Source of the DNA: Planctomycetia bacterium
GTDB taxonomy: Bacteria; Planctomycetota; Planctomycetia; Gemmatales; Gemmataceae
DNA length: 64,000 nt
Direction of reading: 5' to 3'
Assembly (NCBI GenBank): GCA_005772955.1
Contig: SXID01000247.1
Location: 1 to 64,000, forward strand
A program made the translations under genes and the position numbers. Position 1 is the stretch's first letter, and each line of letters opens with the position of its first letter. The notes beneath the pieces are model-generated. The model was not told where the DNA came from. It saw nothing but the letters and a program-made list of their open reading frames with translations, and ran no database searches. Shown piece after piece: positions 49,319 to 64,000 of the stretch.

Positions 49319-49392
49319 GCGCCCGTAGCTCAACTGGATAGAGCATCCGCCTTCTAAGCGGAAGCGTGTGGGTTCGAGTCCCACCGGGCGTA
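49319..49392 (+). tRNA. tRNA-Arg (anticodon TCT)
   Basis: Full cloverleaf by eye: acceptor GCGCCCG / CGGGCGT (first pair G-U), TA, D-arm GCTC-AACTGGATA-GAGC, anticodon stem TCCGC/GCGGA with loop CTTCTAA (TCT, Arg AGA codon), a short variable loop, T-arm GTGGG-TTCGAGT-CCCAC, discriminator A. No CCA is encoded. It lies 116 nt upstream of a tyrosine recombinase, so its 3' end is the probable attachment site. Confidence 0.95.
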
Positions 49393-49508
49393 TTGACCGA
49401 AAACCCTTCAGCCGAAGCGTTTCACGCTTACCCCGGTATGCTCCGGGCGCGGCTTCCGAACGATGGTTTTGTGGAATCGTTCCACGAAACCCTTCGAGGA
49501 ACCGCACC

Positions 49509-50708
49509 ATGCCCCGGCCCCGCAACGTTGTCCCCACCTACACGCAACACAAACAGTCCGGCCGCGGTCGGCTCATCTGGACCGACACCGCCGGTGTTCG
49601 CCACGAAAAGTTGCTCCCCGGCGAGTACGGCAGCGAAGAGTCGCTCGCGGCGAAGGCGCGTCTGGAACTGGAACTCGCGACCAGTCCGACACGCAACCTT
49701 GTCACTTCCAACGACATCACCGTGGCCGAGCTGCTGGCCGCGTACCTCACGCACGCCGCGCGCTACTACGTCGATGCCGAAGGCAAGCCGACGAAGGAGC
49801 TCGGAAACATGAAGTCCGCGATCAAGCCCATGCGCGAACTCTACGCGGACACGCTCGCGGTGGAGTTCGGTCCGCGTGCTCTCGCTGCCGTTCGGCAACG
49901 CATGGTCGGCCTGGATTGGTGCCGCTCGCTCGTGAACCATCAAATCGACCGCATCCGCCGCGCGATGAAGTGGGCTGCAAGCGAGGAACTCATTCCGGTG
50001 ACGACCTACGAAGCCCTCCGCACGCTGGCGGGATTGCGTCGCGGGCGCACCGAAGCGAAAGAAAGTGAACCGGTCAAGCCCGTGCCGGACGAGGTGGTGA
50101 AGGCTACACTGCCGCACCTGCCGCACCACGTCCGCGTCATGGTGGAGCTGATGATGCACACCGGCATGAGGCCGTCAGAAGTGTGCGCGATGACCTTCGG
50201 TCAGATCGACCGCGGCAGCGATGCGTGGACGTACCGGCCCGCGAAGCACAAGACCGCCCACCACGGCAAGGGGCGCGCGATCCCGCTCGGACCGAACGCT
50301 CGCGCCGTTCTGACCGCGTTCTTGGCGGGTCGCGTGCCGGAACCGAACGAGCCGCTCTTCTCTCCGCGCCGCGCACGCGAAGAACGGTTCACACGGCTCC
50401 GCGAGAACCGCAAGAGCAAGGTGCAACCGTCGCAAACGTCGCGGAAGAGGTCGCAACCGAAACGGCTCCCCGCGATGACGTACACACCGAACGTGATCGC
50501 GCACGCCGTCGCTACAGCAGCGAAGAAAGCGAAAGTCTCGCACTGGCACCCATACCAACTCCGCCACAGTTACGCGACGAAAGTGCGCAAACAGCACGGG
50601 CTGGAAGCGGCCGGTGCTGCGCTCGGGCACACGCGGATGAGCGCCACCGAAATCTACGCCGAACGCGATGAACAACTGGCCGCGACCGTCGCCGCGAAGA
50701 TCGGGTAA
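49509..50708 (+). CDS. Tyrosine recombinase / integrase of a tRNA-integrated element
   Basis: A 399-aa tyrosine-type site-specific recombinase. N-terminal SAM-like core-binding part (~70-190), catalytic part with HTGMRPSEVCAM (Arg ~221), HPYQLRHSYATKVR (HxxR ~347-350) and GHTRMSATEIYAERDEQLAA (Tyr nucleophile ~384). It begins 116 nt after tRNA-Arg on the same strand, the standard layout for elements that recombine into a tRNA 3' end. ATG 49509 has GAGG 9 nt upstream. The C-terminal domain is interrupted by a basic linker (RENRKSKVQPSQTSRKRSQP) between the K and H-R motifs. Confidence 0.93.
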   Translation: MPRPRNVVPTYTQHKQSGRGRLIWTDTAGVRHEKLLPGEYGSEESLAAKARLELELATSPTRNLVTSNDITVAELLAAYLTHAARYYVDAEGKPTKELGNMKSAIKPMRELYADTLAVEFGPRALAAVRQRMVGLDWCRSLVNHQIDRIRRAMKWAASEELIPVTTYEALRTLAGLRRGRTEAKESEPVKPVPDEVVKATLPHLPHHVRVMVELMMHTGMRPSEVCAMTFGQIDRGSDAWTYRPAKHKTAHHGKGRAIPLGPNARAVLTAFLAGRVPEPNEPLFSPRRAREERFTRLRENRKSKVQPSQTSRKRSQPKRLPAMTYTPNVIAHAVATAAKKAKVSHWHPYQLRHSYATKVRKQHGLEAAGAALGHTRMSATEIYAERDEQLAATVAAKIG

Positions 50709-53318: not shown

Positions 53319-53699
53319 GTGGCCGATGTCGTTTCCAAAGCTGAAACTGTTCAACCAGTGTTGGCCGAGATCAAGGCGGGCGAGGGCTTGTCCCTGTCCG
53401 CCGCTGGCCGGTTGTTCCCCGGTCACCGCGGCGGCAAGTCCGTCGATCCGAGCACCGTGTTCCGCTGGGTGACCAAAGGCACGCGGACACACGGCGGATC
53501 TGCTGTGAAACTGGAAGCCGCTCGCGTTGGCGGGCGCTGGCTCACTTCCCAAGGCGCCGTCGCGCGGTTTGTCGCCGCGCTCACCGAGGCCGCCAACCCC
53601 ACGTCCACCACTGCCGCCGCGCCCGCGACGCGCACCCCCGTTGCTCGCAGTCGTGCGGTTGAGAAAGCCGTTGCGACCCTGAAGGCGATGGGTGCTTAA
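53319..53699 (+). CDS. DUF1580 domain protein (small HTH/excisionase-like)
   Basis: A 126-aa protein. The central part LSLSAAGRLFPGHRGGKSVD then PSTVFRWVTKG and VKLEAARVGGRWLTSQGAVA matches DUF1580, a planctomycete family resembling MerR/excisionase-type helix-turn-helix proteins (AlpA-like). The last ~40 residues are Ala/Thr-rich and basic. GTG 53319 with GAGGAGGTGA just upstream gives the start. It lies between the dyad and the primase-helicase gene, a position typical of element regulators or directionality factors. Function is inferred from family and position. Confidence 0.82.
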   Translation: MADVVSKAETVQPVLAEIKAGEGLSLSAAGRLFPGHRGGKSVDPSTVFRWVTKGTRTHGGSAVKLEAARVGGRWLTSQGAVARFVAALTEAANPTSTTAAAPATRTPVARSRAVEKAVATLKAMGA

Positions 53700-53772
53700 C
53701 CAATTCTTTTCACCAAACGCAATCGGCCCGGGGCACCGCATCACTGACGCCCCAGACCGATCGGAGGAACCA

Positions 53773-56301
53773 ATGGAATTCAGCGTAACGAGCGGCACGG
53801 GCGATTGCAAGCCCGGCCGCCTGCTCCCGCAGCACCTTGCGGACTTGCAGAACTCCGGGTTGCGCCCCGACATCATCGCCGCTTGCGGCGTTTATTCGGA
53901 GAGTGACCCCGCCCGCGTGAAGGCACTGCTCGGCGGCTACTTGAGTGCGAAGGCCGCTCTCGCAATGGGGCCGTGCCTCGCGTTCCCGTTCTTCGCTGCC
54001 GACGGTGCGCCAGCGACCTGGCTCCGGCGCGACGAAAAGACCGGAAGCGAAACCACGCTGCCCTTCGTGCGGTTCAAACCGGACCGACCGCGCACGTCGA
54101 AAGGACGGGTCATCAAGTACGAGTCCCCGCTCGGCAGCGGGAACCGCGCCTACTTCCCGCCCGGCGTCGGCGCCGTCCTGACCGATCCCACGAAGGAATT
54201 GTTGCTCGTCGAGGGCGAGAAGAAGGCGCTGGCCGGAACGCAGGACGGGTTCCCGACGATCGGGCTGTCCGGCGTTTGGAACTGGACACTGAAGCGCCCC
54301 AAGAACCCGACGACCGGACGCGGGACCGGGCCGCGGAAGTTGATCGACGACCTGGAGAGCGTGAACTGGAAGAACCGCAAGGTCACGATCGTCTTCGACT
54401 CCGATCTGAAGGAGAAACCATCGGTAGAGTGGGCGCGTTGGCACCTGGCACAGGTTCTCGGCGAGCGCGGGGCCGACGTGCGGGTTGTCGATCTGCCTAC
54501 TGGTGACGACCGCGCGAAGTGCGGCCTGGACGACTTCTTGATTGCGCACGGTCCGGCCGCCTTCCGGTTGCTGCTGGACGCTGCCGAACCGCCGCACCGA
54601 CCTGCGGGCGAAGCCGGTTGCGACCGCCGCACGGTCGTGCTGGGCGAAGACGAACACCGGGTCAACGACGAGGTGGCCGCGCAGCTCGCCCGCGACCGCA
54701 CGGTCTACCAGCGCGGCGGCGAGTTGGTCCGCGTGTCCATCGAGGCGCCGCCTGAAGACGGACCGTGCATTTCAGTCGCCCCGCGTATCGAGTCGATTCC
54801 GTCGCCGGCGCTTCGCGACATCATTTCCCGGCGCGTCGACTTCATCCTGATGACCGCCGAGGGCGAGAAGCCAGCACACCCGCCGGGGTGGTGCGTGAAC
54901 GCGGTTGGCGCCCGTGGCAGTTGGCCCGGCGTTCGTCCGCTCACGGGTGTGGTGTCGTTCCCCGTTGTCCGGCGCGACGGCACGATCTTGACCGATGCGG
55001 GGTATGACACCCGCACGGGGCTGTTTCTCCACTGGCTCCGACCGCCGTTGCCGATCCCAGAGCGCCCGACACTCGCCAACGCGAAGGCGGCCGCGGCCGA
55101 ACTGTTGGACGCGGTGTCGGACTTCCCATTCGCGGCCGAGATGTACAAGGCCGCGTGGCTCGCGGCGCTCCTCACCCCGCTGGCGCGTCCCGCGTTCGAC
55201 GGCCCAGCGCCACTGTTCTTGGTGGACGCCAACGTTCGTGCGGCCGGCAAAGGGTTAAGCCTGGAGGTCATCTCTCGCATCGTCACCGGCGACCCGTTCC
55301 CGGTCATCAGTTACCCCTCCAACCCCAAGGACGGCGAAGAGGAGTTACGGAAGAAGATCACGACGTTCCTGCTCTACGGCGACCGGATCGCGCTGTTCGA
55401 CAACCTGACTGGCGCATTTGGAGACGGCACTCTCGACCGAGCGCTAACCGGAACCGAGTGGCAAGATCGCGTGTTGGGAAGCAACCGTCAGTTCCGCGGG
55501 CCGCTGACGGTCACGTTCTACGCGACCGGCAACAACGTCGCGATTCGCGCTGACACCGCCCGCCGCATCTGCCACGTCCGCCTGGAATCGGCACACGAAC
55601 GACCCGAGGAGCGGGCCGACGTGAAACGCCCGCACCTTATCAAGTGGGTCACCGAGAACCGCGAGCGGTTGCTCGCCGGCGCTCTGACGATCTTGCGCGG
55701 GTACTTCGCGGCCGGGCGCCCGGACTTCAAGTTGAAGCCGTGGGGTTCGTTCGAGTCGTGGTCGGCGCTGGTGCGGAACGCAGTAGTGTGGTGCGGACTG
55801 CCGGATCCTGGCGAGACTCGCGTCGCCGTTCAGGAACAGTCCGACGAAACCGCTCGCGGGCTGCGTCAACTCGTCGCCGCGCTGGAACTGCTCGACCCTG
55901 ATCGCACTGGCAAGACCGCGTCGGAGATCGTCAGCGCGGCCGAGGAAGGCTCGTCGCACACGCCCGAAGTTCGCGAGATGGTCCGCGACGCGCTGGAGAT
56001 GCTCATCGGCAAGCCCGACGGTCGCAAGTTGGGCAACCGACTCCGCCACCTGCGCAAGCGAGTTGTCGATGGGAAGTATCTCGATCTGTCGGGCGAGGAC
56101 ACGAAGCGCGTCAACCGGTGGGCGGTGTTCGGCGCGGAGCAATTTCGCACGCGACCGGCGGGACATGCTCCACATACTCCACATCCGCAAGAACCGTCCG
56201 TGCCGCGACGTGAGGATGTGGAGGATGTGGAGGATGTGGTTCACCCTGATGCCGAAACGGAAGTTGCTGGGGCGCAGGCCAACGACGAGGAGTTGTTCTG
56301 A
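53773..56301 (+). CDS. Toprim-like (DUF3854) / P4-type primase-helicase
   Basis: An 842-aa replication-type protein. Residues ~20-260: DUF3854/Toprim-like region (LLLVEGEKKALAGTQDGFPT, TIVFDSDLKEKPSVEWAR with the acidic metal site). Residues ~440-700: a helicase/ATPase core with a weak P-loop AAGKGLSLEVISRIVTG (normally GxGKT), Walker B-like IALFDNLTGAFG and GPLTVTFYATGNNVAI. ATG 53773 with GGAGGAA upstream. The C-terminal tail has a tandem EDV repeat. Such proteins replicate plasmids, phages or phage satellites. It overlaps the next gene as ATGA. Confidence 0.8.
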   Translation: MEFSVTSGTGDCKPGRLLPQHLADLQNSGLRPDIIAACGVYSESDPARVKALLGGYLSAKAALAMGPCLAFPFFAADGAPATWLRRDEKTGSETTLPFVRFKPDRPRTSKGRVIKYESPLGSGNRAYFPPGVGAVLTDPTKELLLVEGEKKALAGTQDGFPTIGLSGVWNWTLKRPKNPTTGRGTGPRKLIDDLESVNWKNRKVTIVFDSDLKEKPSVEWARWHLAQVLGERGADVRVVDLPTGDDRAKCGLDDFLIAHGPAAFRLLLDAAEPPHRPAGEAGCDRRTVVLGEDEHRVNDEVAAQLARDRTVYQRGGELVRVSIEAPPEDGPCISVAPRIESIPSPALRDIISRRVDFILMTAEGEKPAHPPGWCVNAVGARGSWPGVRPLTGVVSFPVVRRDGTILTDAGYDTRTGLFLHWLRPPLPIPERPTLANAKAAAAELLDAVSDFPFAAEMYKAAWLAALLTPLARPAFDGPAPLFLVDANVRAAGKGLSLEVISRIVTGDPFPVISYPSNPKDGEEELRKKITTFLLYGDRIALFDNLTGAFGDGTLDRALTGTEWQDRVLGSNRQFRGPLTVTFYATGNNVAIRADTARRICHVRLESAHERPEERADVKRPHLIKWVTENRERLLAGALTILRGYFAAGRPDFKLKPWGSFESWSALVRNAVVWCGLPDPGETRVAVQEQSDETARGLRQLVAALELLDPDRTGKTASEIVSAAEEGSSHTPEVREMVRDALEMLIGKPDGRKLGNRLRHLRKRVVDGKYLDLSGEDTKRVNRWAVFGAEQFRTRPAGHAPHTPHPQEPSVPRREDVEDVEDVVHPDAETEVAGAQANDEELF
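56168..56232. repeat. Inverted repeat inside the primase 3' coding region
   Basis: CTCCACATACTCCACATCC (56168-56186) pairs with GGATGTGGAGGATGTGGAG (56214-56232) with one mismatch, loop 27 nt; three GAGGATGTG units follow on the right arm. It codes for the low-complexity EDVEDVEDV tail. Confidence 0.6.
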
Positions 56302-57507: not shown

Positions 57508-58536
57508 ATGACCACGCTCGCGAAGATCGAAGCAAACCAGCGCAACGGCCAACTCTCCACCGGGCCGCGCACGCTCGAAGGCAAGACCGCCGTCGCCCGC
57601 AACGCGACCAAACACGGCATCTTCGCGGCGCTGCCCGTGCTTCCGTGTGAGAACGCCGACGAATGGGAGGCACACCGCGCTGGTGTAGTTGCGTCTCTCT
57701 CGCCGGTCGGATTGCTGGAGGTGAATCTCGCGGAACGAGCAGCGTTGCTTCTGTGGCGGCTCCAGCGACTGGCCCGATACGAAGCCGAGATGATCGCGTG
57801 CGCGATGGAGGACGCGGAGGTGCCCCCGCTTCCACCGCCCAAGAACCCGGTTCCCCAACTGTTCCCGGCGCCACAACAGAAGACTCGCGAAGAACAACTC
57901 TGGGACATCCGCGAAGACCTGCGAGCCGCACGCCAAGAGTTGGCCGAAGTCATTCCGGCACAGGACTTCTTCGCCACCGAACCGAAAGCAAACACCGACG
58001 CGGTGGTCGCATTCGAGGTCGCCGAGAGTATTTTGGAAGCCGCGTGCGGGCGTGCCGAGGTCGCGGAGAACCTGCGAGCCGATCCGCCCGCGTTCGGCAG
58101 CAAGCCGTTTCTGAAGAAGCTCGGGTTTTCCGGTGCGGACGCGCGAACCGTGGCGTGGACGTCCGACCTGATCCAGCGCGGACTGACGGTCTACGCGCGT
58201 TTCACCGGAGAGGTAATCGAGCGGTTCACCGAAGGGGTGCGGGTCGATGTGGAACAGCGGGCCGAAGAGTTGACGCGAAAGGTCTGGCGCCTGGAACGCG
58301 AGGCTGCCGCAGTGGTGCGTTTGCTCGACGGTCGAACCGCTCGCAAGCAAGCCGCGCAGATGCTTCCCGGCGACGGGTGCGATGAGCGGATCGCGAAGTA
58401 TGAACGCCACCTGCACTCGCTGCTCACCTCGACGCTTCACGAACTGGAACGACTCCAAGCACGGCGCGAGGGCGAAGCTGTTCCGCCGCCCGTTGTGGCC
58501 GACGTGAACGTGACAGTACTCACTGAGACGGATTGA
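57508..58536 (+). CDS. 'STGPRTxEGK' protein of planctomycete element type
   Basis: A 342-aa protein. The N-terminus NQRNGQLSTGPRTLEGKTAV then ARNATKHGIFAALPVLP is a strongly conserved signature of a family widespread in planctomycetes and some other phyla, usually annotated hypothetical, often close to mobile genes. The middle and C-terminal parts are helical with Ala/Glu/Arg-rich heptad-like segments (QRAEELTRKVWRLEREAAAV, LLTSTLHELERLQARRE), suggesting a coiled coil. ATG 57508; it follows the zinc-ribbon-like gene by 34 bp. No known activity; possibly a nucleic-acid-associated structural protein. Confidence 0.72.
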   Translation: MTTLAKIEANQRNGQLSTGPRTLEGKTAVARNATKHGIFAALPVLPCENADEWEAHRAGVVASLSPVGLLEVNLAERAALLLWRLQRLARYEAEMIACAMEDAEVPPLPPPKNPVPQLFPAPQQKTREEQLWDIREDLRAARQELAEVIPAQDFFATEPKANTDAVVAFEVAESILEAACGRAEVAENLRADPPAFGSKPFLKKLGFSGADARTVAWTSDLIQRGLTVYARFTGEVIERFTEGVRVDVEQRAEELTRKVWRLEREAAAVVRLLDGRTARKQAAQMLPGDGCDERIAKYERHLHSLLTSTLHELERLQARREGEAVPPPVVADVNVTVLTETD

Positions 58537-58826
58537 TGTTGCGGTGGCTTTGTTTTGGCGGACAGGAGCAGGCTGCACGCGGGAGCAAATGTCGGCCCTC
58601 GCCCATCCCGACTGCCGGCAACCGAACCGTCTGAAGAGCTGGTTCGTACTGAATTTATGACGGGCGGCCGTCTGTCGGCTGGCGAGGTTGGTCCGTTCAA
58701 CCGATCTCCTCAAGCCGTTTCGAGTCCGTATAGTATGGTTGGTTAGAACGGGTTCGGGTATGTGCTTCCCGCACCAAGTTCGGTGCGGACCGAGGCGCTC
58801 GACCGCTTTGTTGGTGTGAGGAGACG

Positions 58827-59636
58827 ATGGCCGACGCTCCCGATTACGCCAACCCGCCGATCGCCGAGTTGGTTCTGGGCGCGCAGTTCTCGCCGCTCAC
58901 AAAACTCACGTCGGGGCATTTCGGGTTGTTCTGGAAGAGCTTGGGGGACGAGTGGACCGATCCCTCCGATGGCCCCTTGTTAGATGACAACTTCGAGCGG
59001 TTCGACGGGCCACGATGGGAGCAGTTGCCGAAACTTCAACTCCACTTCGGGCCGGTGCGGTTGCCGGGTCGGTTCGTAATCGGGCACCGGGACAAGCAAC
59101 GTCTCCTTCAGGTTCAAGCCACCCGGTTCCATTTCAACTGGCGGAAGCGCGACGGGTTCTACCCGAGCTATCGCCGCCTGATCGCCGAGTTCGAGGAGAC
59201 GTTCGCCCGCTTCGAGGCGTTCGCTCGCGACGCCGGACTCGGGTCCGTAGCCGTCAACCAATGGGAGATGACGTACATCGACGCCTTCCCACAGGGCGAA
59301 TACTGGCAGACCCCAACCGACTGGCCCGCAGTCCTGCCTGGCTTGTTCGGCCCCCTTCCGTTGGCCGACGGACTGGTTCTGGAAACGCGCGCTGCCGAGT
59401 GGAACTGTGAGATCGCCCCGAAACGCGGGCGGCTGTACGTCGCGGCGCAACTCGGACAGACGCCCGACTCACAGAAGACGGCTCTCGTGCTCCATACGAC
59501 GGCGCGCGGTCCCGTCGGGAAGGGCGGGGCCGACACCCTGCGGGCGGGACTCGACCTCGGCCACGATGCGGCCATCGAGACCTTCCTGCGGGTGACTTCC
59601 GACGAAATCAAAGCCCGATGGGGGAAGAAAACATGA
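58827..59636 (+). CDS. TIGR04255 family protein
   Basis: A 269-aa protein of the sporadically distributed TIGR04255 family, function unknown. Supporting strings: YANPPIAELVLGAQFSPLTK (the family's 'NPPIxExxxxxxF' start), LLQVQATRFHFNWRKRDGFY PSYRRLIAEFEE-type core and VNQWEMTYIDAFPQGEYW. ATG 58827 (MADAPDYANPP) with GTGAGGAGACG upstream. It is the first gene of a three-gene set; its stop overlaps the next start as ATGA. Patchy distribution and location in an accessory island next to a restriction-methylation gene make a defence or toxin-antitoxin role worth testing. Confidence 0.78.
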   Translation: MADAPDYANPPIAELVLGAQFSPLTKLTSGHFGLFWKSLGDEWTDPSDGPLLDDNFERFDGPRWEQLPKLQLHFGPVRLPGRFVIGHRDKQRLLQVQATRFHFNWRKRDGFYPSYRRLIAEFEETFARFEAFARDAGLGSVAVNQWEMTYIDAFPQGEYWQTPTDWPAVLPGLFGPLPLADGLVLETRAAEWNCEIAPKRGRLYVAAQLGQTPDSQKTALVLHTTARGPVGKGGADTLRAGLDLGHDAAIETFLRVTSDEIKARWGKKT

Positions 59637-60058
59637 GTACGATCACCCGATCCGCGACCGGAGCCGCCGCCTTCACGCGCGGCAACTCCGCGCCCCCCTG
59701 GGTACCCGGCGACTGCGCGTTCCACTCCGAACCGGCCGACGGGCCGGCGCGCACTTGGAACGATGTGATCGACGAACTACTCGCCCTGCGCGGGTTGGAG
59801 AACGACTGGGACGGCCAAGGCGCACAAGCCCCGGAACCGGCGCTGGTCGATACGGCGCTCGCCGCCGCCCTCGACTTCCGCTCGTCTGCGATGCCCCCAG
59901 CGGATCGGGCCGTCGCGGGGGTCAATGGAACGGTGTTCTTCGAGTGGTTCTCGCCGACGAAGTATCTGGAGATCGAGGTGACGGCACCCGGTCAGGTCGA
60001 AGGGCGCTGGGTGTACAAGGAATCGAATACGGTCGAAGAGTTCACCCTGTCCCGGTAG
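59633..60058 (+). CDS. Small TIGR04255-linked protein ('LENDWDGxGA' type)
   Basis: A 141-aa protein starting at ATG 59633, overlapping the TIGR04255 stop (ATGA) with GGGGGAAG upstream, so translation is coupled. Residues ~45-65 read IDELLALRGLENDWDGQGAQ, a WDGxGA pattern seen in small unclassified proteins; the C-terminal half (NGTVFFEWFSPTKYLEIEVT, APGQVEGRWVYKESNTVEEF) looks beta-rich. No catalytic motif. It is presumably a partner of the TIGR04255 protein. Confidence 0.68.
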   Translation: MSTITRSATGAAAFTRGNSAPPWVPGDCAFHSEPADGPARTWNDVIDELLALRGLENDWDGQGAQAPEPALVDTALAAALDFRSSAMPPADRAVAGVNGTVFFEWFSPTKYLEIEVTAPGQVEGRWVYKESNTVEEFTLSR

Positions 60059-60090
60059 TCCTCTTACCGGGTCCGTTCGGCGGTGCGCGC

Positions 60091-60528
60091 ATGAAGCCAG
60101 AGACGGACCCGATCGCCGACGACGAGTACCTGCTGCGCCTCGTCTGGCACGACCGGTTTACATCGAAGGTGCCGGTCATCTCCCCGCGGACGTTCGAGCC
60201 GCGAACCAAAGGCGACCACCCCGACGCCGACGGTCTGAGTCTCTTCCGCGAAGCATGCCTGCCCTCTCCGACCGACGCGCTCGCAGTGATCGCGGAAGAC
60301 AAGCGAGCGCGGTACGGCATCGTGCGTATCCCCGTTGCGCGTCTCGCGGCACTCAACCTGACAGTAGCGCCCAGCCCAATCGACGCGGTTCCGGGACACG
60401 TCGTCATCCCCGAAATGAACAGCACGGCCTACCTTGATAAAGCGAACAAGGCGTTCTTCACGGCGACGCAACTACAACTCGCGCAGATCGCCAGCGACAA
60501 CATCGCCCATCAACCTGCCGCCGAGTGA
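60091..60528 (+). CDS. Third gene of the TIGR04255 cassette, unknown
   Basis: A 145-aa protein starting at ATG 60091 (MKPETDPIADDEYLLRLVWH), 32 bp after the previous stop. It contains VPVISPRTFEPRTKGDHPDA then DGLSLFREACLPSPTDALAV and PGHVVIPEMNSTAYLDK. I recognise no named domain; the 'ISPRxFxPR...DGLSLFRE...PGHVVIPEMN' wording recalls uncharacterised proteins that accompany TIGR04255 cassettes. It is convergent with the restriction-methylation gene 13 bp away. Function unknown; compare with the other two genes as a unit. Confidence 0.66.
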   Translation: MKPETDPIADDEYLLRLVWHDRFTSKVPVISPRTFEPRTKGDHPDADGLSLFREACLPSPTDALAVIAEDKRARYGIVRIPVARLAALNLTVAPSPIDAVPGHVVIPEMNSTAYLDKANKAFFTATQLQLAQIASDNIAHQPAAE

Positions 60529-60541
60529 CGTCCGCGCGCAC

Positions 60542-61363
60542 CTACTCGTCGCTTTCCTCTTCTTCGGCCCCGAGCCGGTACTTGATGTCGTAGTTCACGA
60601 TGAAGTCCAACTCCTCCGCCGTGAACCCGTAGTGCTTCGCCAGAAGCGCATCGATCTCGTCAACGATGGGCTTCCCGGTTTTGGGTTTGAACTTCTGATA
60701 CTTGACCGCCCCGCCGACCTCGTAGTTACCACTCCCGATATCGGCGGTCTCTTCCAACCGCTTCATCAGCCGCGAAGATAGCGAGGCACAGTCTTTCACC
60801 CCACTGGCAAGCGAGTCTGTGAGCGGCAAATATCGCAGGTCAGAGGGATTGAAGTCTCGGCAGTTCGTGAGCGATTGGTAAATCCAGTAGTGGAGAGAAC
60901 TGTTGAGACAGCAGAACACGGTGTCTCGCAACAGTTCACTTGCAAAGGATGCGCTGCTCTCACGGGATGACTGACCTGCCACACCGTCTCGCCAGAATTT
61001 CGGTGGCTGAAGAGTGAAGGTAAACCAGTGGCCCACGCCGGTTATCTTGTAGAAGATCTTGTGCTGGGTCTCGGCTGGCGCGAGCGTGTCCCCTATTCGC
61101 TTCGGAACCTGCGAGAGTTTGCGGAAGATACCCACCTCGACTTCCGAACGAAACTTTGGGACGACTGAACCTCCAGAGCAGTTTACCGGGGAGTACCAAA
61201 CTCCTTGGAACAGCAAATCACGCTCAACTGAGTACCATTTGTGGTAGCGCGTCGTGAGGATGGTTGGCGAACCACCAGCCTGACGCTCGGCCAACAGGAT
61301 TGCGAGCCGGGCGTGATTCATACCGTCGAACAGTTTGCTCGGCCGATCGTCGTAGGTTGAATA
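60542..61363 (-). pseudogene. C-terminal (specificity-type) part of a type IIG/Eco57I-like methylase, separated by an in-frame TGA
   Basis: The reading frame continues directly from the gene at 61364-63832: after its TGA come YSTYDDRPSKLFDGMNHARL and AILLAERQAGGS, the normal continuation of Eco57I-type methylases past the NPPY domain. It carries the target-recognition part (DPRYLPL-like SDLRYLPLTDSLAS and KPIVDEIDALLAKHYGFTAE) and ends EEEESDE. The first internal ATG is at 61321, so a separate 259-aa product could be made. Taken with 61364-63832 the full protein would be 1096 aa. Either the two fragments function together, or the gene is inactive. Confidence 0.75.
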
Positions 61364-63832
61364 TCATAGTTGGCGGGCACCGCTGGAAAGCACTTCACGA
61401 ACAGATGACATCCGCTGCGTTGACACTATCGGAGCTTGAACGATGAACCCGAACCTTCCCACTGAGCGAAGGAGGGAAAAGCTACGTTCACTGCAGGGAC
61501 CGTACAGATTGCCGCTTGGCAGCGTCCGGTAATTGAGGAGCGTGTACTGCTCTCTGACTTTGCTGTACTCCACATACGGCGGGTTGCCGATGACGACGTC
61601 GAAGCCGCCGTTGGTCATGATGCCGTAGAACTCGGCGAACCAGTGGAACGGCTTGTGGCTGTCGTGCCACTTCGCGTACTTCTTCTTGTCACTTGCATCG
61701 ATGCCGTACACGCCCGCGAGGTAGCGGTCGAGCTTGTCGGTCGTTTCCCGCAGGCGCAGCCGCAATAACGGCTTCGACGCATTCTCCGCGTGCTGCTTGC
61801 TCGCGGCAGGCGCGTCATGGAGCGTCGTTTGGTACTCGCGGAAGGCGTCGAAATACTTCGCCAACTGCGCAACATCCTCCTCGACTTCCTCAATCTCATT
61901 GTCGTAATCCAGACCGCCCGCCTTCGCCTTGCGGATTTCGTGCGTCGTCGCGAAGCCGACGAGCGTGTTCCCGGGCCGGATGTTGAAGTCGATGTCCGGG
62001 AGCGGCTCGATGTCCTTCGCGCTCTCCACCTGCGACACCAGTTTGAGGAACAGGCGGAGTTTGCAGATCTCCACCGCCTCGTCCATGAGGTCCACGCCGT
62101 ACAGGTTGTTCACCACCACCGAGCGGAAGATGAAGTACCGGCGGTTCGGGTGGCGCTTGGCTTCCGTCAGCACCGCGCGGAAGTCGGCGTGGCGCTCCTT
62201 CGCGTCGGGCTTGCCGGTCGCGTCGGCCTCGGTCACGAAGTCCTGCATGCGCTCCAGGCACGCGTCGTAGAGTGGTTCGAGGATGTTGAGCGCGGCGAAC
62301 AGGAACGCCCCGGACCCGCACGTCGGGTCGAGGACCGTCACCGTCGTGAGCGTCTGGTAGAGCGCGAGGAGTAGGTCCGCGCCCTCGCACTCCTCGATCA
62401 CGTCCGTGACGAACCGCACGATGTCCAGGTTGAGCGTGACCAGATCGTTGACCGCGGTCACGCGGCCGTCGCGGAGCTTCGCGCGCAGTTCTTCGCACCG
62501 CAGACGGCGAGCAACGTGTTCGCGCCAGGTCTCCGTGGGAAGCGCGAAGCCATCGGCGGCCGAGCGGTTCCAGCCGCCGCGCTTGCTCACGTCGGCGATC
62601 CCGGCCGCGATGTCGGGCGGCAGCGGCACATCGGTGCCGTGACGCACCGCCGCATAGATGTAGCGGTCGGGGTCGTCCTTCAGCATCTTCCAGACGGTGC
62701 CGCCCGGTTGAAACGCGACCGCGCACAATTCCTGCACGCGAGAGAGCACGAACGGCAGCAGCGCGTTGCGGGTGATGTACCCGGTGATGTCTTCCTTCGT
62801 GTAGTACGCTCCCATCTGCTTTTGGTTGATGTACTTCTCGAAGATGAACCCGAGCACGTCCGGGTTGATCTCGTTGTCCTTCTTCAGCGGGCGGTCGTCG
62901 AGGTGCCAGTCGTAGAGGTCGAAGAACTCGAACAGCTTGGTGAACGCCGCGTCGGGAATCTGAATGTCGGTGTTCGCGGCCTCCAGTTCGTGAACGTCGA
63001 ACAGCCCGCCGTTGAGGTACGGCACGTCGCCGAGCAGCTTGTCGAACTTCTTGTCGCGCGCGTCCTTCTTCTTGCCCAGCCCCTCGTGGAACAGGCGCAT
63101 CAGGAAGTGCTTGTAGAACGCACCGAACTTGTCCTTCCCCTGGTCCTTCTGAACTTCCGCGAGCTTGTTCCGCAGGTAATCGGGGTCGCCGTTGAGGAAC
63201 CGCTTCTTCTGGATGAAGTAAACGAACATGAGCCGGTTGAGCATGAGCGAGGCGTACCACGCCCGCGACTCGTCCGGCAGCCCCTTGATGAACTTGAGGA
63301 ACGCCGCGTGTTCCTTCTGGAACCGCTCGAAGAACTTCTTGGTGACCTTCTCGACATCGAGCGCCAACTTGCGGCGCTCGAGCGCGTCGGGCAGCGTGAA
63401 GGCTTCTTCCTCGTCGAGTTCGACCAGCAGGTGTTGCAGTTTCTGGGCGAGCCGCTCGCCGGTGTCGCCCGCGGCGAAGCTCTCCTGCCGACTGCGCGGC
63501 GGGCCGTTGCTCTCGCGCTTGACCCACAACCACGTCTGCCGGGTCTTGGTCGCGTCGGTGAAGATCAGGATGTTCTCTTGCGCGAGCTTCGCGACGTGGC
63601 GTTCGAGTTTCAACCGCGCCGCATAGTCGGGGAACCCGGCCGAAGCCGGCGCGACGCACTCGAAGACTTGCAGCCCGCGCTTCTCCGCGACCGACACGAA
63701 GTTGTAGGTCGCGCCGGCGAGTTCGATGGGAAAGCCCGCGCCCGGCTTGTCCCAACCGAGCTGGCTGATGAACAATTTGCGGAAGTCGAAGGCGCGCAGG
63801 TGTTGCTTGACGGCGTCGGCGTTGAACGGCAT
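61364..63832 (-). CDS. Eco57I/type IIG-like N6-adenine methylase with truncated C-terminus (premature TGA)
   Basis: An 822-aa protein from ATG 63832 (MPFNADAVKQHLRAFDFRKL). Residues ~1-330 are an N-terminal nuclease/helical region; ~330-800 form the methyltransferase with QKQMGAYYTKEDITGYITRN, motif I VLDPTCGSGAFLFAAL near residue 502, and motif IV FDVVIGNPPYVEYSK near residue 749. It stops at TGA 61364-61366 after SSVREVLSSGARQL, just before the target-recognition part that continues in frame. By family it methylates adenine and may cut DNA; DISARM DrmMI is an alternative assignment. Downstream of a partial gene at the window edge. Confidence 0.85.
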   Translation of the reverse strand: MPFNADAVKQHLRAFDFRKLFISQLGWDKPGAGFPIELAGATYNFVSVAEKRGLQVFECVAPASAGFPDYAARLKLERHVAKLAQENILIFTDATKTRQTWLWVKRESNGPPRSRQESFAAGDTGERLAQKLQHLLVELDEEEAFTLPDALERRKLALDVEKVTKKFFERFQKEHAAFLKFIKGLPDESRAWYASLMLNRLMFVYFIQKKRFLNGDPDYLRNKLAEVQKDQGKDKFGAFYKHFLMRLFHEGLGKKKDARDKKFDKLLGDVPYLNGGLFDVHELEAANTDIQIPDAAFTKLFEFFDLYDWHLDDRPLKKDNEINPDVLGFIFEKYINQKQMGAYYTKEDITGYITRNALLPFVLSRVQELCAVAFQPGGTVWKMLKDDPDRYIYAAVRHGTDVPLPPDIAAGIADVSKRGGWNRSAADGFALPTETWREHVARRLRCEELRAKLRDGRVTAVNDLVTLNLDIVRFVTDVIEECEGADLLLALYQTLTTVTVLDPTCGSGAFLFAALNILEPLYDACLERMQDFVTEADATGKPDAKERHADFRAVLTEAKRHPNRRYFIFRSVVVNNLYGVDLMDEAVEICKLRLFLKLVSQVESAKDIEPLPDIDFNIRPGNTLVGFATTHEIRKAKAGGLDYDNEIEEVEEDVAQLAKYFDAFREYQTTLHDAPAASKQHAENASKPLLRLRLRETTDKLDRYLAGVYGIDASDKKKYAKWHDSHKPFHWFAEFYGIMTNGGFDVVIGNPPYVEYSKVREQYTLLNYRTLPSGNLYGPCSERSFSLLRSVGRFGFIVQAPIVSTQRMSSVREVLSSGARQL

Positions 63833-63836
63833 TGGG

Positions 63837-64000
63837 CTATGCTCCCGGCGCGGGGGCGACCAACCCCAGCGAACAGATGATCTGCGCCTCCTGCTTCTGC
63901 GACTCCTCTTCCACCACGCACAACTTGTCCTCTTCGCGCAGCGCGATGACCAGCGACGCGAGCGCGTCGTCCTCGACGCCGATGCGGAGCTGGCGGTTCA
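63837..64000 (-). CDS. C-terminal end of a gene cut by the window edge (possibly a helicase)
   Basis: The frame is open from the right edge to TAG at 63837. Its end reads NRQLRIGVEDDALASLVIAL then REEDKLCVVEEESQKQEAQI and ICSLGLVAPAPGA. The stop is 4 bp upstream of the methylase ATG, so the two are in one operon. C-termini of this kind occur in helicases that precede Eco57I/DrmMI-type methylases, but 54 residues are too few to be sure. Confidence 0.6.
   Translation of the reverse strand, partial: NRQLRIGVEDDALASLVIALREEDKLCVVEEESQKQEAQIICSLGLVAPAPGA

What the first reader, a model, noticed from the sequence alone, without database searches (positions are those of the whole stretch)
61364..61366. 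Single in-frame TGA splits a type IIG-like restriction-methylation gene, probably at a Trp codon
The frames 61364-63832 and 60542-61363 are the same reading frame (63832 minus 61321 is 837 codons exactly). Around the stop the translation reads ...SSGARQL-stop-YSTYDDRPSKLFDG. In homologues as I remember them, this region has a W before Y/F-S and then RPSKLFDG, so TGG to TGA is the simplest explanation. The stop falls between the methyltransferase core and the target-recognition part, so a methylase without target specificity might be made. This could be a silenced defence system, a reversible state, or a sequencing error.
Basis: partly seen in the sequence, partly recalled or inferred. Interest (0 to 1): 0.72.

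Follow-up and report, generated by a model that had tools for sequence, protein, structure and literature searches.

The report
Stop codon breaks a DNA-methylating enzyme
In this bacterium, one stop codon cuts short the DNA-methylating half of a two-gene restriction-like defence unit; related bacteria have the gene whole, so this is most likely an ordinary recent loss-of-function mutation (or a sequencing error) and not a new decoding trick.

Summary
The in-frame TGA at 61364-61366 (- strand) is present in the assembly. It splits one gene: 822 codons before it and 273 after. About 80 homologues carry a single ~1100-aa frame. At this column they have Trp in 47 of 80, with no indel needed, so TGG to TGA is the simplest origin.

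The stop is not between the methyltransferase core and the target-recognition domain. It lies inside the catalytic fold, in the strand modelled at 819-827, before the invariant RPxxLF segment. Neither fragment should methylate.

The gene is half of a conserved pair. An HKD/PLD-SNF2 helicase-nuclease lies next to it in 72 of 80 loci, and here it is intact.

Selenocysteine needed testing, because this genome has SelA, SelB, SelD, tRNA-Sec and a TGA-containing formate dehydrogenase with a SECIS hairpin. The TGA in question has no such hairpin. A TGA=Trp code is also excluded, since TGA is the commonest stop.

No decay is seen downstream, and no comparable split appeared in 0.65 Mb of the genome. 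A recent nonsense mutation is most likely; a consensus error cannot be excluded without reads. Interest is low. Side observation: duplicated 3' ends of this gene bracket toxin-antitoxin genes in related loci.

The parts
61364..61366 (-). In-frame TGA (codon 823) that interrupts the methyltransferase gene
   Evidence: Sequence and translation; aligned column is W in 47 of 80 homologues
61364..63832 (-). First open frame, 822 aa: N-terminal alpha/beta domain, helical region, gamma-class adenine methyltransferase fold up to about strand 6
   Evidence: PDLC03628 E 2e-280 and Pfam Eco57I E 4.7e-24; AF2 model
62309..62329 (-). Motif I (DPTCGSG, residues 502-508), AdoMet binding
   Evidence: Alignment A1: D502, G506, S507 and G508 invariant, the rest nearly invariant
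61574..61585 (-). Motif IV (NPPY, residues 750-753), catalytic
   Evidence: N750, P751 and P752 invariant, Y753 nearly so, in A1
61328..61345 (-). RPSKLF (residues 830-835) just after the stop; P831 and F835 invariant in 80/80; lost from the first product and from any product started at the ATG at 61321
60542..61363 (-). Continuation of the gene after the TGA: end of the catalytic fold, target-recognition domain, conserved C-terminal tail (residues 824-1096)
   Evidence: PDLC03628 profile 830-1099, E 2.3e-48; one mismatch in 28 highly conserved columns
61319..61321 (-). First ATG after the stop (M838), only candidate internal start; not a conserved Met (V 40, L 19, A 14, M 5 of 80)
63837..64000 (-). 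3' end of the partner gene, an intact 1134-aa HKD/PLD + SNF2 helicase (contig 63837-67241, runs out of the window)
   Evidence: Locus L111 5838-9242; found next to the MTase in 72 of 80 loci; catalytic motifs intact
49319..50708 (+). tRNA-Arg(tct) followed by a phage-type integrase gene: possible left end of a genomic island that holds the pair (inference)
   Evidence: no second copy of the tRNA 3' end found on the contig

Best explanation
This is a recent nonsense substitution, most simply TGG to TGA at Trp823, in the adenine-methyltransferase gene of a two-gene restriction-modification-like unit (HKD/PLD-SNF2 helicase-nuclease plus gamma-class m6A methyltransferase with its own target-recognition domain). 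Shown: the stop, the single frame in homologues, the lack of an indel, the intact partner gene and the lack of other damage. Inferred: translation ends within the catalytic sheet; the 822-aa product lacks strand 7 and the conserved RPxxLF segment as well as the target-recognition domain, so it is inactive; the downstream piece is not usefully translated. The unit is therefore probably silenced. The helicase-nuclease left behind is presumably harmless without the methyltransferase's target recognition, because cells with an active nuclease and no protection would not survive.
For: Same-frame split bridged by one profile. About 80 homologues uninterrupted at this site. W in 47/80 at this column, no indel. 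Downstream part not decayed: 1 mismatch in 28 columns conserved at 90% or more, against a median of 3.6% in intact homologues. Partner helicase open over 1134 codons with H139, K141, D149, GSSNLT, GLGKT, DESH and QRAGRVDR kept. TGA is the commonest stop here, 142 of 258, so it is not recoded. No SECIS. No comparable in-frame split in about 0.65 Mb of this genome; every candidate had an ordinary start codon soon after the stop or was not a gene-like frame. TRD-less HsdM structures align to model residues up to about 895, so 823 is inside the catalytic module; M.TaqI aligns 98-199 to profile 737-827, within its 245-aa catalytic domain (PMC3874165).
Against: No reads, coverage or sister genome could be checked, so a consensus error or a minority-strain allele gives the same sequence. 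The closest full-length relatives (L031, L032) have Ala, not Trp, so the ancestral codon is not certain. The stop survey only detects same-frame stops in genes with strong codon bias and did not itself flag this gene.
Confidence: 0.66

Rival explanations
1. Sequencing, polishing or strain-mixing error: the living cell has a sense codon and a working methyltransferase.
For: A single base accounts for everything and nothing else in the gene or its partner is damaged; the genome is a draft of 278 contigs.
Against: No similar mid-gene in-frame stop found in about 0.65 Mb of the same assembly; the site is not in a homopolymer.
Confidence: 0.25
2. Reversible or standing OFF allele: the gene is switched by point reversion, or the interrupted segment is replaced by recombination with another target-recognition domain.
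For: The segment around and after the stop has low third-position GC (0.64 against 0.91 in the core and 0.92 in the tail), as in the family at large (median drop 0.18), which fits frequent exchange of this segment.
Against: No repeat tract, invertible segment or spare copy of this segment in the window or genome.
Confidence: 0.05
3. Programmed split: the two pieces are made separately (reinitiation at the ATG 61321) and assemble into an active enzyme.
For: An in-frame ATG lies 14 codons after the stop.
Against: None of about 80 homologues is split here; both pieces would lack the residues between the stop and M838, with the invariant P831 and F835; M838 is not a conserved Met.
Confidence: 0.02
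4. UGA is read as selenocysteine.
For: The genome has SelA, SelB, SelD, tRNA-Sec and a formate dehydrogenase with an in-frame TGA; one homologue (L043) has Cys at this column.
Against: No SECIS: folding of 40-60 nt after UGA is no better than shuffles (z 0.05, -0.13, 0.66), whereas the formate dehydrogenase TGA has a strong hairpin with a GGUCU loop (-20.5 against -8.9 kcal/mol over 50 nt). Cys in only 1 of 80 homologues, Trp in 47.
Confidence: 0.01

Closest known systems
PADLOC PDLC03628 'REase_MTase_IIG' family (type IIG-like enzymes of the Eco57I methylase kind)
   Same: Full-length profile match, same length (1096 of 1100), same order of parts
   Different: Interrupted by TGA; no conserved PD-(D/E)xK triad seen in the N-terminal domain; paired with an HKD-SNF2 helicase
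Synechocystis sp. PCC 6803 plasmid pSYSX pair SGL_RS01585 (helicase-related) / SGL_RS01600 (DNA methyltransferase)
   Same: 46.9% identical over the whole length; same helicase-then-methyltransferase arrangement
   Different: Uninterrupted (aligned residue V); a VapC-type toxin gene and a small gene lie between the two
Type-2 BREX-related (BR) systems (PMC12839542)
   Same: HKD-endoDNase fused to a Swi2/Snf2 helicase plus an N6-methyltransferase, proposed to act like restriction-modification
   Different: DUF499 ATPase not found in this genome; here a two-gene helicase/methyltransferase unit
M.TaqI, CamA and PglX/BrxX (gamma-class adenine methyltransferases)
   Same: Fold and motifs I and IV; VIA Z 17-21
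   Different: M.TaqI and CamA lack the N-terminal ~330 residues; PglX belongs to BREX

Membership tests
Type IIG restriction-modification enzyme | Gamma-class methyltransferase with motif I and NPPY | tested here: met
   Alignment A1: D502, G506, S507, G508, N750, P751 and P752 invariant, Y753 nearly so; Pfam Eco57I E 4.7e-24
Type IIG restriction-modification enzyme | N-terminal nuclease domain in the same chain | tested here: inconclusive
   Residues 1-160 model well (pLDDT 90.6) but no Foldseek hit at E 0.001 or better and best VIA Z 6.3; in 43 sequences only G26, W27, K51, P68, W101 and W103 are invariant, no D...(D/E)xK pattern
Type IIG restriction-modification enzyme | Target-recognition domain C-terminal to the methyltransferase, in one chain | tested here: not met
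   True of the homologues, but in this gene the TGA at codon 823 precedes it
HKD/PLD-SNF2 helicase + methyltransferase two-gene unit (described here from the loci) | Helicase gene adjacent to and upstream of the methyltransferase gene | tested here: met
   72 of 80 homologous loci and this contig; catalytic residues conserved in 62 near-full-length partners
Type-2 BREX-related system | DUF499 ATPase | tested here: not met
   No PF04465 match in this genome; control rang in Thermotoga maritima
Type-2 BREX-related system | DUF3780 protein | tested here: inconclusive
   No PF12635 match, but no control genome rang either
DISARM / phospholipase D anti-phage protein (NF042964) | Helicase above the curated NCBIfam cut-off | tested here: not met
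   DrmD 131.5 of 610 bits; NF042964 147.3 of 1100 bits
Selenoprotein gene | Sec machinery in the genome | tested here: met
   SelA, SelB, SelD above cut-off, tRNA-Sec 71 bits against 47
Selenoprotein gene | SECIS hairpin just 3' of the UGA | tested here: not met
   z 0.05, -0.13 and 0.66, against a clear GGUCU-loop hairpin in the genome's own formate dehydrogenase gene

The most novel reading that the evidence does not exclude
The TGA is a standing OFF allele in a living population. The helicase-nuclease/methyltransferase unit is switched between ON and OFF, and its target specificity changed, by recombination that replaces the exchangeable segment in which the stop lies.
Probability: 0.05. 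Interest if true: 0.5.

Novelty: new member of a known kind. Interest (0 to 1): 0.2.

Why it matters
It is one more case of a restriction-type methyltransferase lost by a nonsense mutation, with its helicase-nuclease partner left intact. That makes a simple question testable: whether the nuclease half is harmless without the methyltransferase's target recognition (a type I-like complex) or dangerous. It also shows that a TGA in a genome with selenocysteine machinery needs a SECIS check before it is called a mutation or an error.

Tried and rejected
Selenocysteine: tested because the genome has the machinery; rejected for lack of a SECIS, with the genome's own formate dehydrogenase as positive control.

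TGA read as Trp throughout the genome: rejected, TGA ends 142 of 258 training genes.

Frameshift instead of substitution: rejected, the closest homologues align without gap through the site.

Long-standing decay of the downstream part: rejected.

Recent import of the target-recognition segment as special to this gene: rejected, the low third-position GC there is a family trait (18 of 80 homologues have at least as large a drop).

Close relatives: no full-length copy in same-genus genomes, only weak methyltransferase matches; none near-identical in plasmids; only distant ones in viral contigs. So the allele could not be dated or compared with a sister strain.

N-terminal domain: a separate model gave no convincing fold match.

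Rfam: no match in 58000-64000.

Literature: I found no held paper that names the two-gene pair; slr6050, my guess from memory at the old locus tag of the Synechocystis methyltransferase, found none.

Full report
WHAT IS THERE. On the minus strand, codon 823 of a 1096-codon frame is TGA (61366-61364). The 822 codons before it and the 273 after it share one frame. PADLOC profile PDLC03628 (type IIG restriction enzyme-methyltransferase, 1100 positions) covers the first part at profile 3-822 and the second at 830-1099, and the read-through product at 3-1092 of 1096 residues. A scan of one genome per species gave 80 homologous loci, nearly all with one open frame of roughly 1070-1140 aa. The few stops seen in homologues lie elsewhere (query positions 14, 272 and 1089). 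None ends at this point.

WHAT THE CODON WAS. In an alignment of 80 homologues the column of the TGA holds W in 47, Y 10, H 10, A 4, then I, S, L, F, K and C. It is followed by [RP]-x-x-L-F, with P831 and F835 invariant, and the closest homologues align through the site without a gap. One base change from Trp is the simplest reading. The relatives most similar over both halves (L031 56%/53%, L032 55%/51%) have Ala, and L034 (55%/47%) and L033 have Trp, so the exact ancestral codon stays an inference.

WHERE THE STOP FALLS IN THE PROTEIN. An AlphaFold2 model from 55 sequences (mean pLDDT 79.8) puts residue 823 in a strand (819-827) after helix 806-818 and before strand 843-850. This fits the reversed hairpin (strands 6 and 7) of class I methyltransferases, as described for CamA (PMC8187626). 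Solved HsdM subunits, which have no target-recognition domain, align to model residues up to about 895 (2ar0, 2okc, 3lkd, 3ufb, 7vs4). M.TaqI residues 98-199 align with profile 737-827, within its 245-aa catalytic domain (PMC3874165). So the stop is inside the catalytic module.

THE SYSTEM. The next gene on the contig (63837-67241; L111) encodes an intact 1134-aa protein with an HKD/PLD nuclease domain and an SNF2 helicase. The same helicase lies beside the methyltransferase in 72 of 80 homologous loci, and several of the other eight lie on short stretches. In 62 near-full-length partners H139, K141, D149, GSSNLT, the Walker A, DESH and motif VI residues are conserved, and this genome's copy keeps all of them. 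The Synechocystis plasmid pSYSX carries the same pair. A related architecture (HKD-helicase plus N6-methyltransferase plus DUF499 plus DUF3780) has been called a Type-2 BREX-related system (PMC12839542). DUF499 is absent from this genome, so the unit is not filed there. The most likely working mode, by inference, is restriction-modification with the nuclease on the helicase chain.

IS IT A CODING TRICK? TGA ends 142 of 258 training genes, so it is not generally Trp. The genome has SelA, SelB, SelD and tRNA-Sec and a formate dehydrogenase with one in-frame TGA, so selenocysteine had to be tested. That formate dehydrogenase TGA is followed by a strong hairpin with a GGUCU loop (-20.5 kcal/mol over 50 nt). 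The TGA studied here has only weak structure (-8.9 kcal/mol), no better than shuffles. Selenocysteine is rejected.

MUTATION OR ERROR? The downstream half shows no decay: 1 mismatch in 28 columns conserved at 90% or more, against a median of 3.6% in intact homologues. There is no second lesion in the gene or its partner. In about 0.65 Mb of this assembly, every candidate same-frame split turned out to have an ordinary start codon soon after the stop, or was not gene-like on the far side. So the assembly is not full of such stops. But that survey is limited to same-frame stops in genes with strong codon bias, it did not itself flag this gene, and no reads or sister strain were available. I put a real recent nonsense mutation at about 0.66 and an error or strain mixture at about 0.25.

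FAMILY TRAIT AROUND THE STOP. Third-position GC is about 0.91 in the core (residues 170-756), 0.64 in 765-1040 and 0.92 in the tail. The same drop appears across the family (median 0.18; 0.24 in high-GC members). This fits frequent exchange of the target-recognition segment, in which the stop lies, but it is not special to this gene.

SIDE OBSERVATION. In 12 of 72 homologous loci part of the last ~150 bp of the methyltransferase gene is repeated downstream. Control stretches from inside the gene gave a hit only in L080, which has a second methyltransferase gene. In L078 four extra copies follow at 541-810 bp spacing, each after small genes, mostly toxin-antitoxin type (PIN, HicAB, ParE/Phd families). 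The window gene has no such repeat. This looks like insertion of small cassettes at the 3' end of the gene with the end restored each time. It was not taken further.

Noticed in passing
L078:8179-10987 (also L035, L040, L044, L047, L048, L049, L053, L054, L056, L062): The 3' end of the methyltransferase gene is repeated downstream. In L078 five copies of ~130 bp (the extra ones 74-85% identical to the gene's own end) bracket DUF6883, PIN, HicAB and ParE/Phd genes. 12 of 72 loci show at least one such DNA repeat; internal control segments hit only the tandem gene in L080. Possibly a docking site for toxin-antitoxin cassettes.
   Followed up: partly
window 60542-63832, residues 765-1040: Third-position GC drops from about 0.91 to 0.64 in the target-recognition segment and recovers in the conserved tail; a family-wide trait that fits frequent exchange of this segment.
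   Followed up: partly
G000:C137:6608-8467 (L185), C34, C8, C124, C44: The window's genome has a full selenocysteine pathway and a formate dehydrogenase gene with an in-frame TGA and a GGUCU-loop SECIS-like hairpin.
   Followed up: yes
window 49319-50708: tRNA-Arg(tct) directly followed by a phage-type integrase, then a DUF3854 (primase-like) gene at 53692-56301: probably a genomic island. No second attachment copy found on the 68.7 kb contig.
   Followed up: partly
window 58827-59636 and L049:10098-10922: A TIGR04255-family gene lies downstream of the methyltransferase here, and a protein with a similar N-terminus lies between two copies of the 3'-end repeat in L049 (similarity judged by eye).
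   Followed up: no
L080:4977-11972: Two tandem copies of the methyltransferase in Dolichospermum planctonicum, 72% identical proteins.
   Followed up: no
L031:8311-11858: Downstream of the pair in a Phycisphaerales MAG are a SIR2-like gene and a HerA-like gene, another likely defence module.
   Followed up: no
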